A stretch of 64,000 bases of DNA, from positions 30,401 through 94,400 of the forward strand of contig JAJRUJ010000075.1 of assembly GCA_024277855.1 (NCBI GenBank), written 5' to 3'. Each line of letters starts with the position of its first letter. The stretch's first letter is position 1. Below, piece by piece: positions 16,703-24,534 of this stretch. The notes under the pieces were generated by a model, which saw nothing but the letters and a program-made list of their open reading frames with translations, searched no databases and was not told where the DNA came from. The translations under genes were made by a program, and so were the position numbers. The DNA comes from Candidatus Zixiibacteriota bacterium (GTDB taxonomy: Bacteria; Zixibacteria; MSB-5A5; WJJR01; JAJRUJ01).

Positions 16703-18553
16703 ATGGTAAAGAATTTAAAACCCGAAGACATCAATGTCATCCTCGCGACCGACTGCGGGTCGACCACCACCAAAGCGGTCCTGATCGAAAAACGCGACGG
16801 TGAGTATCGCCTGATCGTACGCGGCGAGGCCCCCACCACGGTTGAAGCGCCTTTTGAAGATGTGACGATGGGTGTGCTCAACGCGGTGGGTGAAGTCGAA
16901 GAAATCTCCGGTCGCAAACTGCTGGATGATGACGGCAGGATCATCAGTCCGGCCAACGGCACCACCGGTACCGACATTTACATTTCGACGTCGTCGGCCG
17001 GGGGCGGTTTGCAGATGATGGTGGCCGGGGTGGTTCGTTCAATGACCGCCGAATCGGCCGAGCGCGCCGCGTTGGGCGCCGGTTCAATCGTGATGGACGT
17101 TATCGCTTCCAACGATAAGCGGCTGCCCCACGAACAGATCGAACGCATCCGTCTCCTCCGCCCCGATATGATCCTACTCTCCGGCGGTATCGACGGTGGT
17201 ACTACTACGCATGTTGTCGAAATCGCCGAATTGATTTCCGCCGCCGATCCCCGGCCGCGACTTGGTTCGGGTTACAAACTGCCCGTAATCTATGCCGGGA
17301 ACGTCGAGGCCCGCCCGGCGATTACCGAGGCGCTCGCGGATAAAACCGACCTCTCGATTGTCGACAACCTCCGGCCGGTTCTCGAACGGGAAAACCTGTT
17401 GCCCGCCCGCGAAAAAATCCACGATCTGTTTATGGAACATGTGATGGCCCAGGCCCCGGGATACTCCAGATTGATGTCCTGGGCCGATGCGCCGATTATG
17501 CCGACTCCCGGCGCGGTAGGCTCGATTATCAAGACCATTGCCGACCTCGAGGGAATCGAGGCGGTCGGCGTCGATATCGGCGGGGCGACCACCGATGTGT
17601 TTTCGGTCTTCCAGGGGGTCTTCAATCGGACCGTGTCGGCCAACCTCGGAATGAGTTATTCGGTCTCCAATGTTTTCGCCGAAGCCGGTGTGCCCAACGT
17701 GATGCGCTGGGTGCCGTTTGACATGGACGAACGCGACCTGCGCAACCGGGTCAAAAATAAAATGATCCGGCCCACCACTATTCCGCAATCGATGCAGGAG
17801 TTGGTTTTCGAGCAGGCCATTGCCAAGGAAGCCCTCCGCTTGGCCTTTATTCAGCATAAATCGTTTGCCACGATGCTTAAGGGTGTCCAGCAGCAGCGCA
17901 CGATTGCCGATGCTTTCGAGCAGACAACTTCCGGCGGAACCCTGGTCAACATGATGACTTTAAATATGTTGATCGGTTCGGGCGGCGTACTTTCCCACGC
18001 TCCCCGCCGCAACCAGGCGGCGCTGATGATGATCGACGCTTTCCAGCCCGAGGGAATCACCCGGCTGGCGGTCGACTCGATCTTCATGATGCCGCAGCTC
18101 GGTGTTTTAGCCGAGGTTCACCAGGCGGCGGCGACCGAAGTGTTCAATAAAGATTGTCTGATCCATCTTGGTACCTGTATCTGTCCGGTCGGCGCGTTGA
18201 AAAAGGGCACAGGCCCGGTGATGAATTATTCCATCGACCTGCCTGAAGGAACGCAGTCCGGCACACTCGAATACGGTCAGATGAAGATGTTTAAACTCGG
18301 CATGGATGAGAAAACCAGTCTCCCGCACGAGGTCAATGCGGTATTTGAACCCGAACGTAATTTTGACCTTGGCGCGGGCAAAGGGCATAAAATCGAAACA
18401 ACAATTTCCGGCGGGGTGGTCGGGATCATCCTCGACGGCCGCGGGCGGCCGTTCTCACCGCCGAAAGACAACGCGACACGCGTAGCCAAACTCAAAGAGT
18501 GGATGGCCGAGTTGGAAGTCTATCCGACCGAGGCGCTGGCAAAACTGACTTAG
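16703..18553 (+). CDS. Glutamate mutase-associated MutL/GlmL-like ATPase
   Basis: ILATDCGSTTTKAVLIEK, GGLQMMVAGVVRSMTAESAERAALGAGSIVMDV, VGVDIGGATTDVFSVF: GlmL/MutL family actin-like ATPase motifs. Confidence 0.88.
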   Translation: MVKNLKPEDINVILATDCGSTTTKAVLIEKRDGEYRLIVRGEAPTTVEAPFEDVTMGVLNAVGEVEEISGRKLLDDDGRIISPANGTTGTDIYISTSSAGGGLQMMVAGVVRSMTAESAERAALGAGSIVMDVIASNDKRLPHEQIERIRLLRPDMILLSGGIDGGTTTHVVEIAELISAADPRPRLGSGYKLPVIYAGNVEARPAITEALADKTDLSIVDNLRPVLERENLLPAREKIHDLFMEHVMAQAPGYSRLMSWADAPIMPTPGAVGSIIKTIADLEGIEAVGVDIGGATTDVFSVFQGVFNRTVSANLGMSYSVSNVFAEAGVPNVMRWVPFDMDERDLRNRVKNKMIRPTTIPQSMQELVFEQAIAKEALRLAFIQHKSFATMLKGVQQQRTIADAFEQTTSGGTLVNMMTLNMLIGSGGVLSHAPRRNQAALMMIDAFQPEGITRLAVDSIFMMPQLGVLAEVHQAAATEVFNKDCLIHLGTCICPVGALKKGTGPVMNYSIDLPEGTQSGTLEYGQMKMFKLGMDEKTSLPHEVNAVFEPERNFDLGAGKGHKIETTISGGVVGIILDGRGRPFSPPKDNATRVAKLKEWMAELEVYPTEALAKLT

Positions 18554-18599
18554 GAGTGATACTCCCAAAGAGCTTACGCTCGTAAATTAAGGTGGTAGG

Positions 18600-19871
18600 T
18601 TGGTGTCGGGAAATTATTTTGGGAAGTACCATATTTTCCGCGATCCCGTACATGGATTTATTGAGGTATACGACCGTGAACTGGACATCATCAATACTAA
18701 AGCGTTTCAGCGTTTAAGGAGGATCAAACAATTAGCCTTAACGCATTACGTCTATCACGGTGCTAACCATACGAGGTTTGGACATTCAATAGGAGTAATG
18801 GCGGTTTCGGATCGTATATTTCAGATTGTTACACACAAGGACAAATATAATAAAAAAGTATTGCATTGGACAAAAACACCTGTAGAAGTAAGAAAGAGAA
18901 GAGTGCTTCTTCGTTTGGTGGCTCTCTTACATGACGTTGGACACACACCATTTTCTCATGTTGGCGAAAAATTCCTGCCGGGTGGAATAAATCATGAAGA
19001 TTTCACAGCAAAAGTCATCAGGGAGGATGGTGAAATTGGGCAAATTATTGATGAAGTTGAGAAAAATGAGGGTGTAGGAAGAGAGGATTTGGCTCAGTTT
19101 TTTGAGGGTAGGAAGCCAGATCAATTAATTCAACAAATTTGTATGGGCCCTTTGGATGCTGATAAAATAGACTATTTACATCGAGATTCACTTTTCGCTG
19201 GAGTGCATTATGGGAAATTCGATTATGAGCGTCTTATCCATAAAATGTGTGTCGTACTCCACAAGGAGAATGGGGATCCGACAATAGCAGTAGAGGAGGG
19301 TGGGGAGCACGCAGCAGAGGCGATGATTATGGCAAGGTTTTCAATGTTTCAACAAGTGTATTTTAACCGTACAAGGAGGATTTACGATAAGCACTTACAA
19401 AATTTTATACATGAGACCTTGGAGGATGGGGCTTTCCCACGCGATGTGGAAGAATTCATGAAATTCGATGACGCCTATTTTGAAAGTCATTTTTCGCGGG
19501 CCAACAAAGGGGACGATCTTTCTTATTCTTTTAGAGCGCTGGCATTTAGAGAGCATTTTAAAGCTGTGAGACACACCGCAAAATACCCCGTGCCGATTGA
19601 AGTGAGACTCTTTCGAAAAAATTTTGAAGAATTAAAATCAAAGTATTCAGATTTAATTCTTGACGATGCAACTCAGGCACCTCACAATTGGGAAGAAGAG
19701 GACAAGGTCATTTTCATTGAGTTGAAAGATGGAAGCGACATAAAGGATTTGGAGAGCTTTGGAACATATTTGACTTCGATAAAACCGATAAGGAAACATA
19801 GAATATACTCACCGCCCGGCGAAACCTTTGCTAAAGTACAAAAGGAATGTGAGGCAAAGAAATGGAAGTGA
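18600..19871 (+). CDS. HD-domain phosphohydrolase, SAMHD1/YwfO-like (putative dNTPase); start TTG 18600 or GTG 18603
   Basis: H..HD..D signature: ANHTRFGHSIGVMAVS, RLVALLHDVGHTPFSHVGE, GPLDADKIDYLHRDSLFAGVHYGKFDYERLI. Visibly AT-richer than its neighbours. Confidence 0.88.
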   Translation: MVSGNYFGKYHIFRDPVHGFIEVYDRELDIINTKAFQRLRRIKQLALTHYVYHGANHTRFGHSIGVMAVSDRIFQIVTHKDKYNKKVLHWTKTPVEVRKRRVLLRLVALLHDVGHTPFSHVGEKFLPGGINHEDFTAKVIREDGEIGQIIDEVEKNEGVGREDLAQFFEGRKPDQLIQQICMGPLDADKIDYLHRDSLFAGVHYGKFDYERLIHKMCVVLHKENGDPTIAVEEGGEHAAEAMIMARFSMFQQVYFNRTRRIYDKHLQNFIHETLEDGAFPRDVEEFMKFDDAYFESHFSRANKGDDLSYSFRALAFREHFKAVRHTAKYPVPIEVRLFRKNFEELKSKYSDLILDDATQAPHNWEEEDKVIFIELKDGSDIKDLESFGTYLTSIKPIRKHRIYSPPGETFAKVQKECEAKKWK

Positions 19872-20416
19872 ATCTTGATCACCATAATATCGCTGAGCTA
19901 TCAATACTCCAGGTAATAGATGCTCTAGGAAGCCAAAAGGAGTATTTTGGCAAAATCATAACGCAGAAAACAGTTTATTTTCTTTCTCAGGTATTTGATG
20001 TGAATTTGCCTTATCCCTTTATATTCTATCATTATGGCCCATATTCGTTTGATTTACAACATGCTATCGACAAGCTTCAATTATTTGGTGCAATCGTGGT
20101 AAGTAGAGACCCAAATGGTATCGGTTATAGCTACAGTATCACTAAAGAAGGGAAAGAGCTGTTAAGTAAAGCCTCTTTAGAAGAAGAAGTATTGAAGGCG
20201 ATAAAAAAGGCCACTGAATTTGTTGGCGATAAGACTCCCACTCAACTTGAGTTGTTGTCAACAATCCACTTCGCAAATAGTACGCACAAACCGGAAAACG
20301 TTCAAATCCTTGTGGAAACCGTCAAGTATCTAAAACCAAAATTTGCCAAGGATTATATCGAAGAACAGATTGAATTCTTGAAAGCAAATAAAATGATCCA
20401 AGAAAGTTTGAGTTAG
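19862..20416 (+). CDS. YwgA-like protein (partner of the HD phosphohydrolase)
   Basis: Overlaps the HD gene by 10 bp; KIITQKTVYFLSQVFDVNLPYPFIFYHYGPYSFDLQHAIDKL..GYSYSITKEGKELL resembles YwgA-type proteins. Confidence 0.6.
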   Translation: MEVNLDHHNIAELSILQVIDALGSQKEYFGKIITQKTVYFLSQVFDVNLPYPFIFYHYGPYSFDLQHAIDKLQLFGAIVVSRDPNGIGYSYSITKEGKELLSKASLEEEVLKAIKKATEFVGDKTPTQLELLSTIHFANSTHKPENVQILVETVKYLKPKFAKDYIEEQIEFLKANKMIQESLS

Positions 20417-20417
20417 C

Positions 20418-21539
20418 ATGGCACATGCATATACCCCCGGTCTGAAAGTGACCGAAAACTATCTGGTGACCAAGGAACGAATCCTGCCGCTGAAAGGCGA
20501 GGTCATCGTCAAAGTCGGCGACATGGTTGAACCAGATGACGTCGTCGCGCAAACTTATCTGCCGGGTCCGGTCGAACCGCTGAATGTCGCCAACAAGCTC
20601 AGCGTCCCGCCGGAGGATGTGAACGACCTGATGCTGAAAAAAGAAGGTGACCAGGTCAAAAAAGGCGAAGTGATCGCCTTGTCGAAGGCCTTCTTTGGTC
20701 TGCTCAAAAGCACCGCTGCTTCGCCAATCGACGGGTCGATTGAAAACATCTCCTCGGTCACCGGCCAGGTGTTGATGCGGGGCCAGCCGGTGCCCGTACA
20801 AGTGAAGGCCTATCTTAAAGGTGAAGTTGTTAAGGTGTTCGAAAAAGAGGGCGTCGCGGTACGGACCTGGGGTTCGTTTATCCAGGGGATTTTCGGTATC
20901 GGCGGCGAGACGCACGGCGAAATCATGGGTGTCTGTGCCGATAATTTCGAGATCCTTTCCGCGGACAAAATCACCGATGCCTGTAAAGACAAAATCATCT
21001 TTGGCGGTTCGGTCGTGACTGCCGATGCGCTGAACAAGGCGATCAAAGTCGGCGCCCGCGGGATTGTGGTCGGCGGCTTTAACGACCAGGACTTGCGCAA
21101 TTTCCTCGGTTACGATCTCGGCGTGGCGATTACCGGCAACGAAGACAAAGGTATCACGCTGGTGGTCACTGAGGGTTTCGGCGAAATCAACATGGCCCAG
21201 AAAACATTCGAATTACTCAAGAAAAATGAGGGTAAGCTGGCCTGTATCAACGGCGCCACCCAGATTCGCGCCGGGGTCATCCGGCCGGAAGTGGTCATCC
21301 CGCTGGAAAAAACCGGCGACGAGTACGCCGCAGGCGAAATACTTGGCCTCACGGTTTGCTCTCCGGTGCGGGTCATCCGCCAGCCGTATTTTGGCAAACT
21401 CGGTACCGTCACCGAGCTCCCGCCGGAGTTGCGGGTACTGGAATCCGGCTCAAAAGCCCGTGTCCTCGAGGTTGAGTTCCCCGACAAGGAACGCGCAATT
21501 ATTCCCCGCGCCAATGTCGAGATGATCGAAGAAATTTGA
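20418..21539 (+). CDS. Conserved protein with barrel/KOW-like motifs, probable ancestral operon partner of the glmL-like gene; function unknown
   Basis: Long ORF with housekeeping-like codon usage; repeated barrel-like segments (GEVIVKVGDMVEPDDVVAQ, KKGEVIALSK, SPIDGSIENISSVTGQVLMRGQP) and a KOW-like C-terminus (PYFGKLGTVTELPPELRVLESGSKARVLEVEF). Confidence 0.75.
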   Translation: MAHAYTPGLKVTENYLVTKERILPLKGEVIVKVGDMVEPDDVVAQTYLPGPVEPLNVANKLSVPPEDVNDLMLKKEGDQVKKGEVIALSKAFFGLLKSTAASPIDGSIENISSVTGQVLMRGQPVPVQVKAYLKGEVVKVFEKEGVAVRTWGSFIQGIFGIGGETHGEIMGVCADNFEILSADKITDACKDKIIFGGSVVTADALNKAIKVGARGIVVGGFNDQDLRNFLGYDLGVAITGNEDKGITLVVTEGFGEINMAQKTFELLKKNEGKLACINGATQIRAGVIRPEVVIPLEKTGDEYAAGEILGLTVCSPVRVIRQPYFGKLGTVTELPPELRVLESGSKARVLEVEFPDKERAIIPRANVEMIEEI

Positions 21540-21727: not shown

Positions 21728-22951
21728 ATGGGAAATCAAATCCTGATTAGAAATGTGCCTGATCACATTAAGAAACGAATTGACCGTGAACGGCAGAGTT
21801 TACTTATGTCCCAACAAGAATACCTTCTTAAACTCTTGGAAGATTCGACGGAGTCGCCTCAATTCCCCCTTTTTGATGATACCAAGGAGTTTGGAAGATT
21901 AGAATTGCCCAATACACCCTTCACTTTCGTCGATTTATTCGCTGGCATTGGGGGTTTCCGGATTGGGTTCGAGCGAGTGGGGGGGCGGTGTATATACTCT
22001 GTGGAATGGGACAAATATGCCCAGAAAACTTACAAAGCATGGTTCGGTGAGGTGCCGCATGGTGATATCCGCAAGATCAGGCCTGCAGACATCCCCGACC
22101 ATGACATCATGCTTGCAGGTTTCCCCTGTCAGCCGTTTTCACTAGCCGGTGTTTCGAAGAAGAAAAGTCTGGGCAGGGAGCACGGTTTCAAAGATAAAAC
22201 CCAAGGTACACTGTTTTTTCACTTGGCAACCATCGCTCAAATTAAGCGCCCCCCGATTCTGGTCCTCGAGAACGTCCGGAATCTCCTCTCCCATGACAAG
22301 GGCCACACATGGGAGGTTATTAAATCCACATTGGAGGAGCTGGATTATAAGGTGCATCACAAGGTAATTGACGGTGCAGACTACGTGCCCCAGCATCGAA
22401 AACGTGTTTTTATTGTCTGTTTTGACGTCCGGATTTTCGGAAAGAGACCACCATTCAGTTTCCCGAGTCCTCCAACTCATAAACCGCCCAAGTTCAAAAA
22501 AATTCTCGAACGAAATCCCGACAGAAAGTATACACTCTCTGACCACCTTTGGCAATATTTGCAGGATTATGCCAGATCGCATCGGGAACGGGGAAATGGA
22601 TTTGGTTTTGGGATCGCTGATCCGAACGGGCGATCGAGGACACTGAGCGCGAGATATTACAAGGATGGGTCAGAGATTCTCATCGCTCAAAATGGTGGTA
22701 GGAATCCGAGGAGGATGACGCCACGAGAGGCAGCAAGACTTATGGGATTTGACGATTCACTGCCTATTGTGGTTTCGGACACACAGGCCTATCGCCAGTT
22801 CGGAAATGCTGTAATACCCATTGTCACAGAGGCTATTGCGAAGCAAGTCGTTAGAGTAATGGCATGGCAGATCACGAGAAATGGAAACGGTTGCCTTCTC
22901 AAGAGCGGGAAGACAAGAACTACCCGTAAAGCAGTTCTTAGGACGGATTGA
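21728..22951 (+). CDS. DNA (cytosine-5) methyltransferase, EcoRII/Dcm-like, with N-terminal RHH-like segment
   Basis: FVDLFAGIGGFRIGFE, AGFPCQPFSLAG, LENVRNLLSHDKGHT, DYVPQHRKRVFIV, RRMTPREAARLMGF, YRQFGNAV; N-term NQILIRNVPDHIKKRIDRERQSLLMSQQEYLLKLLED. Confidence 0.95.
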   Translation: MGNQILIRNVPDHIKKRIDRERQSLLMSQQEYLLKLLEDSTESPQFPLFDDTKEFGRLELPNTPFTFVDLFAGIGGFRIGFERVGGRCIYSVEWDKYAQKTYKAWFGEVPHGDIRKIRPADIPDHDIMLAGFPCQPFSLAGVSKKKSLGREHGFKDKTQGTLFFHLATIAQIKRPPILVLENVRNLLSHDKGHTWEVIKSTLEELDYKVHHKVIDGADYVPQHRKRVFIVCFDVRIFGKRPPFSFPSPPTHKPPKFKKILERNPDRKYTLSDHLWQYLQDYARSHRERGNGFGFGIADPNGRSRTLSARYYKDGSEILIAQNGGRNPRRMTPREAARLMGFDDSLPIVVSDTQAYRQFGNAVIPIVTEAIAKQVVRVMAWQITRNGNGCLLKSGKTRTTRKAVLRTD

Positions 22952-24117
22952 CTATGCCTTCACTAACTTCCGAACGTGCCATAGCTGATGCGTTAACGCA
23001 TGGCAGGGCACTACTGAAATTCATCTCACCGAACAACGTGGGCTTGACCGGCAGTCATGAATGTGGATACTATCTACCCAAATCTGCTTGGAAGCTATAT
23101 ACACCATACCCACCAACCAAAGGTAGGAACGACGATCACAATGTTGAAATCCTCTGGCCAGATGGGCGAGTGACAGAATCAATAATCAAGTGGTATGGTG
23201 CTGCAAAGAGTGAATACCGCCTCACCCGTTTTGGAAGAGATTTCCCGTGGCTGACCGCAGATAACGTCGGTGATCTGCTTGTCTTGATCCCCACGGGGCA
23301 CAGAAGTTTGACTGCGCACGTTCTAGATCTGGATGATGACATAGCAGACATTCAGGCTGCCCTCGGCGTAGAGATCATCGGGAGTTGGGGAATCTATGAG
23401 GGCGATAGGGAGGTTGCCCTGGAAAGTGAGGACGAATGCGTCGAGAAACGTTTCAGATCTTACGCCGGATCAGTTGAGGGTTTCCCCAGTACCAATGCAC
23501 TCTCCGGTGAAACGCTCAGCGTTCTCAAAGATTGCTTCACGGATTTTGGTGCTATGCCTGCGGATAATCAGATTCTGGATCTCGTCAAAGCCGAATATGC
23601 TCTGTTCAGACTTGTTGAACGTCGTCTGTGCGAAAGCAGCGTTTCACGACTGTTCAAATCGGTTGATGACTTCCTGCGGACTGCTGCCACCATTATGAAC
23701 CGGAGGAAATCGCGCGCAGGCCGTGCTTTGGAGAACCACGTGGAACACGTGCTGCGTGATTTTGAGATTCCCTTCGATGTGAGGCCAAAAGTCGACGGAA
23801 GGCCGGATTTTATCATCCCGAGCAAAGAGGCATACGATGATGAATCTTTTCCCGTTGAGCAGTTGTTTATGGTGGGTGTGAAGACAACATGCAAAGACAG
23901 ATGGCGTCAGGTTCTGAATGAAGCGAAGAGGATTCCGTGCAAGCATCTCTTGACAATTCAGCCCGGAATCTCCAAGGCGCAACTTCATGAGATGAAAGAT
24001 TCGAATATGAAGTTGATCGTACCTAAGCCATTGCAAGAAAAGTACCCAGCGGGAAGTGGCATTTCCATGTTCACCGTGGAAGAGTTCATCAGTACTGTCC
24101 GGAAAAAGCTGGAGTGA
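22948..24117 (+). CDS. EcoRII-type type II restriction endonuclease (probable ATG start 22954)
   Basis: C-terminal EcoRII catalytic region: RAGRALENHVEHVL...RPDFIIPSKEAYDDESFPVEQLFMVGVKTTCKDRWRQVLNEAKRI; directly follows the MTase. Confidence 0.92.
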   Translation: MTMPSLTSERAIADALTHGRALLKFISPNNVGLTGSHECGYYLPKSAWKLYTPYPPTKGRNDDHNVEILWPDGRVTESIIKWYGAAKSEYRLTRFGRDFPWLTADNVGDLLVLIPTGHRSLTAHVLDLDDDIADIQAALGVEIIGSWGIYEGDREVALESEDECVEKRFRSYAGSVEGFPSTNALSGETLSVLKDCFTDFGAMPADNQILDLVKAEYALFRLVERRLCESSVSRLFKSVDDFLRTAATIMNRRKSRAGRALENHVEHVLRDFEIPFDVRPKVDGRPDFIIPSKEAYDDESFPVEQLFMVGVKTTCKDRWRQVLNEAKRIPCKHLLTIQPGISKAQLHEMKDSNMKLIVPKPLQEKYPAGSGISMFTVEEFISTVRKKLE

Positions 24118-24120
24118 CTC

Positions 24121-24534
24121 GTGGTTGATGTACATACTCCAGAGCAGAGGCGCCGCAACATGGCAGCCATAAGATCCAAGGACACGAAGCCAGAGATGAT
24201 CGTTAGAAGACTCGTTCACTCATTGGGTTTTCGATACAGATTGCACCGCAAAAATCTTCCCGGCAAACCCGATCTGGTCCTGCCGCGATTGAAAACGGTG
24301 ATTTTTGTAAATGGGTGCTATTGGCATATGCATAGCTGTCGTTTCGGAAGAGTTTATCCCAAGACTAATGCCATTTTTTGGCAGAAGAAGCGACGCGAAA
24401 ATGTTCTCCGAGATCGGAGAAATCGCACTAAATTGAAAAGGCTCGGTTGGCGTGTTTTGACTATTTGGGAATGTCAACTTAAGAATAAAGACCGACTTCA
24501 AGAACGCTTAAATTCGTATTTGTCAGATCTCTAA
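24121..24534 (+). CDS. vsr: Very short patch repair endonuclease Vsr
   Basis: MAAIRSKDTKPEMIVRRLVHSLGFRYRLHRKNLPGKPDLVLPRLKTVIFVNGCYWHMHSC..., WECQLKN. Confidence 0.96.
   Translation: MVDVHTPEQRRRNMAAIRSKDTKPEMIVRRLVHSLGFRYRLHRKNLPGKPDLVLPRLKTVIFVNGCYWHMHSCRFGRVYPKTNAIFWQKKRRENVLRDRRNRTKLKRLGWRVLTIWECQLKNKDRLQERLNSYLSDL

What the first reader, a model, noticed from the sequence alone, without database searches (positions are those of the whole stretch)
18600..20416. HD phosphohydrolase (SAMHD1/YwfO-like) + YwgA-like two-gene cassette inserted into a glmL/KOW-protein gene pair
Seen: a visibly AT-richer, tightly overlapping gene pair (10-bp overlap) sits between a GC-rich GlmL-like gene (stop 18553) and a GC-rich barrel/KOW gene whose ATG (20418) starts 1 nt after the YwgA-like stop. 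Gene 1 carries the full HD signature; gene 2 resembles YwgA (YHYGPYS core, winged-helix-like C-terminus). Established (from memory): SAMHD1-like HD enzymes are dNTPases, dNTP depletion is a known anti-phage strategy, and ywfO and ywgA are neighbours in Bacillus. Inference: a mobile effector + partner/regulator module, possibly defensive, lying about 1.3 kb from an EcoRII-type RM island. This is the best candidate here for an under-described system.
Basis: partly seen in the sequence, partly recalled or inferred. Interest (0 to 1): 0.6.

Follow-up and report, generated by a model that had tools for sequence, protein, structure and literature searches.

The report
Roaming dNTPase and antitoxin-like gene pair
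Two overlapping genes, a predicted DNA-building-block destroyer and a partner shaped like the inhibitory half of a known antitoxin, travel together across bacteria and archaea, often beside phage-defence genes, and are probably an under-described immune or toxin-antitoxin-like module.

Summary
Gene 1 (18600-19871) is an HD dNTPase of the EF1143/YwfO/SAMHD1 kind with all catalytic residues. Gene 2 (19862-20416) is YwgA-like; its profile matches and predicted fold are those of the C-terminal, toxin-binding domain of the antitoxin DarG. The pair is an AT-rich insert: in the same-family relative glmL and the next gene lie 47 bp apart with nothing between. It is a real two-gene unit: 22 loci in 20 of 133 genomes of this class and 42 of 80 GTDB loci carry it, in both gene orders, with strongly correlated divergence. 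In Bacilli it sits in fixed, housekeeping-like synteny; elsewhere its neighbourhood is never conserved and it can lie inside or against Hma, BREX, DISARM-like and type IIG systems. Two cassettes at this same site in other families carry a box that in one of those genomes also precedes lexA and dinB; the window copy has none. The three same-site copies form one clade, so 'recent mobile insertion' is only one reading. No PADLOC model and no paper found describes the pair. Best reading: a dNTP-depleting effector held in check by a DarG-CTD-like partner. Anti-phage effect, dNTPase activity and contact of the two proteins remain unproven.

The parts
18600..19871 (+). Gene 1: HD-domain dNTP triphosphohydrolase (EF1143/YwfO/SAMHD1-like), TTG start; metal ligands H62, H111-D112, D191 and catalytic H120/H132 present
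19862..20416 (+). Gene 2: YwgA-like protein with the fold of the DarG C-terminal (toxin-binding) domain
18554..18599 (+). 46-bp spacer between glmL-like stop and gene 1, holding two short inverted repeats (GGAGT-gat-ACTCC, GAGC-ttac-GCTC); no LexA-type box
16703..18553 (+). Left flank: MutL/GlmL-like gene, present in 58 of 58 relatives searched
20418..21539 (+). Right flank: conserved gene (barrel-sandwich-like), directly after glmL in relatives with an empty site
21728..24534 (+). Adjacent but separate EcoRII-type restriction-modification island (C5 methylase, EcoRII endonuclease, Vsr), absent at that place from the same-family relative

Best explanation
The pair is a self-contained effector-plus-restrainer module. 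Gene 1 is a SAMHD1/EF1143-type enzyme that breaks dNTPs down and so can stop DNA replication. Gene 2 is a small protein of the DarG C-terminal-domain fold that binds gene 1 and holds it inactive, or tunes it, as DarG holds DarT. When a phage or DNA damage disturbs the cell (through relief of the restraint or, in two relatives, probable release from LexA), dNTPs are depleted and replication of phage or cell stalls. Outside Bacilli the pair roams and is used as a stand-alone or add-on defence or toxin-antitoxin-like module; in Bacilli it has settled into core dNTP control. Shown here: families, fold, linkage, patchiness, defence neighbours, and a lexA/dinB-type box on two cassettes. Inferred: enzymatic activity of this copy, binding, inhibition, and anti-phage effect.
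For: Gene 1 matches solved dNTPases (2hek E 3e-49; EF1143 2o6i E 4.5e-41; SAMHD1 about 1e-19) with aligned H/HD/D metal ligands; those residues and the SAMHD1-type catalytic histidines are invariant in 15 family members. EF1143 is a dGTP-activated homotetrameric dNTPase (PMC8177086). Gene 2 matches DarG profiles only over their C-terminal part (PADLOC 3.2e-15, positions 163-326 of 329; NCBIfam 2.3e-13); its model (pLDDT 94) matches the DarG chains of the DarTG complex 7yk3 and nothing else well (E 5e-5, prob 1.00, TM 0.67). Linkage: 22 class loci with adjacent pairs, 18 HD-first and 4 partner-first, plus one partner-first locus cut by a contig end; 42 of 80 GTDB loci, all directly downstream on the same strand. 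Distance-matrix correlation r 0.825 for 48 non-Bacilli pairs against a permuted maximum of 0.24. Context: HmaA-[HD-YwgA]-HmaB in L138 and L161, PglX-PglZ in L182, type IIG enzymes in L145 and L155, DrmD-like in L146; at least 11 of 91 neighbours match PADLOC against 1 of 103 control genes (p about 0.001). Conserved neighbours: Bacilli 101 of 127, other phyla 0 of 86, this class 0 of 131. Box TTGACA-N2-TGCAC-N4-GTGCA precedes the cassettes of G035 and G053; in G035 it also precedes lexA and dinB.
Against: No experiment. The fused HD-YwgA model has high local confidence (pLDDT 93) but pTM 0.75 and no interface score, so contact is not shown. Within the window's own class the excess of defence neighbours is weak (4-8 of 101; p 0.02-0.18). 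The window copy lacks the LexA-type box and may be read from the glmL promoter. In Bacilli the pair looks like core metabolism. The PADLOC control was drawn from the class, not from the phyla of the wider set.
Confidence: 0.57

Rival explanations
1. Housekeeping dNTP homeostasis: gene 1 trims dNTP pools and gene 2 is its regulatory subunit; the pair is a metabolic accessory with no immune role, and its patchiness reflects loss and transfer.
For: In Bacilli the pair is vertically inherited and sits in conserved synteny. EF1143-type enzymes regulate dNTP pools.
Against: In this class the pair is in only 20 of 133 genomes and never in a conserved neighbourhood; it is nested inside Hma and BREX loci elsewhere.
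Confidence: 0.22
2. Toxin-antitoxin stabilisation or stress module: gene 1 is a growth-arresting toxin, gene 2 its antitoxin, kept by addiction or used in the DNA-damage response rather than against phage.
For: DarG antitoxin-domain fold, gene overlap, lexA/dinB-type box on two cassettes; other toxin-antitoxin-like cargo (MNT-HEPN, HEPN_Cthe2314) at the same site in relatives.
Against: The toxin-first order is unlike most type II systems; toxicity is untested; embedding within Hma and BREX loci points to defence.
Confidence: 0.15
3. Gene 2 is a DNA-binding repressor of the cassette, not a protein inhibitor of gene 1.
For: Weak fold resemblance of part of gene 2 to MarR-type winged helices; palindromes lie upstream of a few cassettes.
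Against: MarR hits are weak (E 0.2 or worse, TM mostly 0.2-0.3) against E 5e-5 and TM 0.67 for DarG. The G035 palindrome also sits before lexA and dinB, so LexA explains it. No palindrome is shared by the other cassettes.
Confidence: 0.06

Closest known systems
EF1143 / YwfO bacterial SAMHD1-like dNTPases (PDB 2o6i, 3irh, 4lrl)
   Same: Same HD family over the catalytic and associated regions; metal ligands and catalytic residues present
   Different: EF1143 was characterised as a single protein; here the enzyme is tied to a DarG-CTD-like partner and, outside Bacilli, lives in shifting contexts
DarTG toxin-antitoxin (DarG C-terminal domain, PDB 7yk3)
   Same: Gene 2 has the fold and sequence signature of the DarG domain that neutralises DarT
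   Different: No DarT ADP-ribosyltransferase and no DarG macrodomain; the partner enzyme is an HD dNTPase
Clover (CloA dGTPase + CloB nucleotidyltransferase; PMC12265719)
   Same: Two-gene unit of an HD dNTPase and a restraining partner
   Different: CloB makes an inhibitory nucleotide; gene 2 here is not a nucleotidyltransferase but a DarG-CTD-like protein
Single-gene anti-phage dGTPases (PADLOC dGTPase, NF041026)
   Same: HD dNTP hydrolase, dNTP-depletion logic
   Different: Gene 1 reaches only 44.7 bits against a 152-bit cut-off for the dGTPase subfamily and 31 against 400 for the anti-phage model; it has a dedicated partner

Membership tests
EF1143/SAMHD1-like HD dNTPases | HD-superfamily metal ligands H..HD..D and SAMHD1-type catalytic histidines | tested here: met
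   Alignment to 2hek and 2o6i; residues invariant in 15 family members
EF1143/SAMHD1-like HD dNTPases | dNTP triphosphohydrolase activity, dGTP-activated tetramer | not testable with these tools
   Activity known for EF1143 (PMC8177086), not for this copy
Canonical dGTPase (TIGR01353) and anti-phage dGTPase (NF041026) | Score over the curated cut-off | tested here: not met
   44.7 of 152 bits; 30.8 of 400 bits
DarTG toxin-antitoxin | DarG C-terminal domain fold | tested here: met
DarTG toxin-antitoxin | DarT toxin and DarG macrodomain in the locus | tested here: not met
   Gene 2 (184 aa) aligns only to the C-terminal half of DarG; the neighbour is an HD enzyme
Clover | Pol-beta nucleotidyltransferase partner (CloB) | tested here: not met
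   No nucleotidyltransferase match for gene 2
Panacea (SocA/PanA) antitoxins | Pfam Panacea domain match | tested here: not met
   No such hit at E up to 1; only MC2 at 0.13
Anti-phage defence module | Enrichment beside known defence genes | tested here: met
   Across other phyla; weak within the window's class
Anti-phage defence module | Protection against phage | not testable with these tools
   Needs phage challenge
SOS-regulated gene | LexA box in the promoter of the window copy | tested here: not met
   Absent upstream of the window copy; a box shared with lexA and dinB precedes the G035 cassette, and the same box the G053 one

The most novel reading that the evidence does not exclude
A new two-gene immune module in which a SAMHD1-type dNTPase is locked by a DarG-CTD-like, possibly nucleic-acid-mimicking, protein and released by DNA damage or phage replication. 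It is used alone or slotted inside Hma and BREX loci and has been domesticated in Bacilli as ywfO-ywgA. The DarG-CTD fold would then be a general effector lock reused across immune systems.
Probability: 0.3. Interest if true: 0.8.

Novelty: new variant of a known kind. Interest (0 to 1): 0.6.

Why it matters
It ties the bacterial relatives of the human antiviral enzyme SAMHD1 to an antitoxin-type partner. It gives a concrete testable role to the uncharacterised YwgA family, including in Bacillus. It also points to dNTP depletion as an add-on to BREX and Hma, and links at least two copies to a probable SOS box.

Tried and rejected
Phage records: no protein match to gene 2. Plasmids: 27 distant HD matches, none over 60% identity; of five regions opened, four were annotated and showed other HD gene sets. 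The complex was attempted by reading natural in-frame Bacilli pairs through the stop as one chain: confident domains but no interface measure. PDB 9mr6 was first thought to be CloA; it is a fungal SAMHD1. General palindromes before all cassettes: 5 of 134 against 2.4 expected, so only the lexA/dinB-type boxes and one GAAC-N4-GTTC box just behind a sigma-70-like promoter in Clostridium L135 were kept. Papers naming YwgA in a relevant sense: none found. Direct repeats flanking the insert were not tested systematically.

Full report
OBSERVATION. The pair is AT-rich (GC 0.40 and 0.37; GC3 0.38 and 0.37) between genes of GC 0.57 and 0.56 (GC3 0.70 and 0.68). The left neighbour is a MutL/GlmL-family protein below the GlmL equivalog cut-off. 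The right neighbour has no KOW match. An EcoRII-type restriction-modification island follows at 21728-24534.

THE SITE. glmL is in all 58 relatives searched. Among 49 fetched sites, 18 have glmL and the right-hand gene 42-175 bp apart, including the same-family genome G001 (47 bp), so the pair is an insert relative to these. Nineteen sites hold 0.5-1 kb, five hold more, and in seven the right-hand gene was not found. Cargo includes a conserved membrane protein, a glycosyltransferase, an MNT-HEPN pair, HEPN_Cthe2314-like proteins and a dGTPase-like gene. G035 carries HD+YwgA at this exact site; G053 carries the HD gene there, its contig ending just after. The three HDs form one clade (SH-aLRT 99, quick tree). 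Their identities (42, 43, 49%) follow glmL's (79, 78, 86%). Close kin of G035 and of the window lack the cassette. Old residence with many losses, or repeated same-site gain, both fit.

THE PAIR. Gene 1 matches Aquifex O67745 (2hek, 3e-49), EF1143 (2o6i, 4.5e-41) and SAMHD1; H62, H111, D112, H120, H132 and D191 are invariant. The family is dNTPase by the EF1143 biochemistry reviewed in PMC8177086. Gene 2 is hit by DarG models only over their C-terminal half, with weaker hits to PDC-M19A and LmuC. Its model (65 sequences, pLDDT 94, pTM 0.89) matches the DarG chains of the M. tuberculosis DarTG complex (E 5e-5, prob 1.00, TM 0.67) and nothing else well. That DarG domain keeps DarT inhibited by ssDNA mimicry according to the title of Deep et al. 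2023, cited in PMC12170906.

LINKAGE. In 133 class genomes, 22 loci in 20 genomes have adjacent HD and YwgA-like genes; 18 are HD first, while a clade of longer HDs has the partner first. HD hits without a partner are divergent types or end at a contig edge. In an HD-led scan of GTDB genomes, 42 of 80 loci have the partner, always next downstream on the same strand. They span Bacillota, Planctomycetota, Verrucomicrobiota, Armatimonadota, Spirochaetota, Chloroflexota, Thermodesulfobacteriota, Nitrospirota and the archaeon Methanothrix. Nine of 30 IMG/VR loci have it too. HD and partner distances correlate (r 0.94 for all 71; 0.825 for 48 non-Bacilli; permuted maximum 0.33 and 0.24). The pair is AT-richer than its surroundings in 43 of 44 loci, by 8.4 points on average, so AT-richness is a property of the module and not by itself proof of recent transfer.

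TWO LIFESTYLES. In Bacilli the tree follows taxonomy and 101 of 127 neighbouring proteins recur beside at least a quarter of the other loci. In other phyla this is 0 of 86, and in the window's class 0 of 131. Outside Bacilli the pair lies between HmaA and HmaB (L138 Desulfacinum; L161 Planctomycetota), behind an HmaA fragment (L144), behind PglX-PglZ (L182, Clostridium), against a type IIG enzyme (L145), near another (L155), and near a DrmD-like helicase (L146). At least 11 of 91 neighbours match PADLOC at 1e-8 to 1e-10 against 1 of 103 control genes. Within the window's class the excess is weak.

REGULATION. The promoters of the G035 and G053 cassettes hold TTGACA-N2-TGCAC-N4-GTGCA. This occurs perfectly four times in G035: before lexA, before dinB (pol IV), before the cassette, and at a fourth place at a contig start; in the related G040 the palindrome precedes lexA, dinB and a helicase (gene names from reading the translations). 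These cassettes are therefore probably under LexA. lexA itself was not found in the incomplete G053 assembly. A Clostridium pair (L135) has AGAACAAATGTTCT just behind a TTGACA/TATAAT promoter. The window genome's own boxes are of the GAAC-N4-GTTC kind, and none lies upstream of the window pair.

MECHANISM AND LIMITS. The most economical model is a dNTPase effector restrained by a DarG-CTD-like partner. A one-chain model built from natural in-frame Bacilli pairs gave confident domains (EF1143 fold, TM to target about 0.9) but pTM 0.75 and no interface score, so contact is unproven. Clover (PMC12265719) shows that a two-gene dNTPase plus restrainer can be anti-phage, with a chemically different restrainer. 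No PADLOC or Pfam model covers gene 2 over its cut-off, and no relevant paper naming YwgA was found; subscription literature could not be searched.

Noticed in passing
L276 and L269 (G035, G053), L271, L268, L289, L293: TGCAC-N4-GTGCA appears to be the LexA box of one part of this class (before lexA and dinB), whereas the window's genome uses GAAC-N4-GTTC-like boxes.
   Followed up: partly
window 16703-21539 and L039-L087: The gap between the glmL-like gene and its right neighbour is a recurrent insertion spot, with cargo including MNT-HEPN, HEPN_Cthe2314-like, dGTPase-like, glycosyltransferase and HD-YwgA genes.
   Followed up: partly
window 21728-24534: EcoRII-type island (methylase, EcoRII, Vsr) lies between the right-hand gene and a thrombospondin-repeat-like gene; absent at that place in G001.
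   Followed up: partly
L265 (Rhizobium plasmid), L266 (Roseibium plasmid): Recurrent set of radical SAM, 3'-5' exonuclease, AAA ATPase and HD protein on plasmids; in Rhizobium next to VapC and an ABC-three-component system.
   Followed up: no
L222-L236 (IMG/VR contigs): A distinct clade of ~510-aa HD proteins on viral contigs without a YwgA-like neighbour.
   Followed up: no
L067 (G042:C579): HD-YwgA pair about 3 kb beyond the right-hand gene of the glmL pair, with the HD frame broken by one stop.
   Followed up: no
window 18554-18599: Two adjacent short inverted repeats between the glmL-like stop and gene 1.
   Followed up: no
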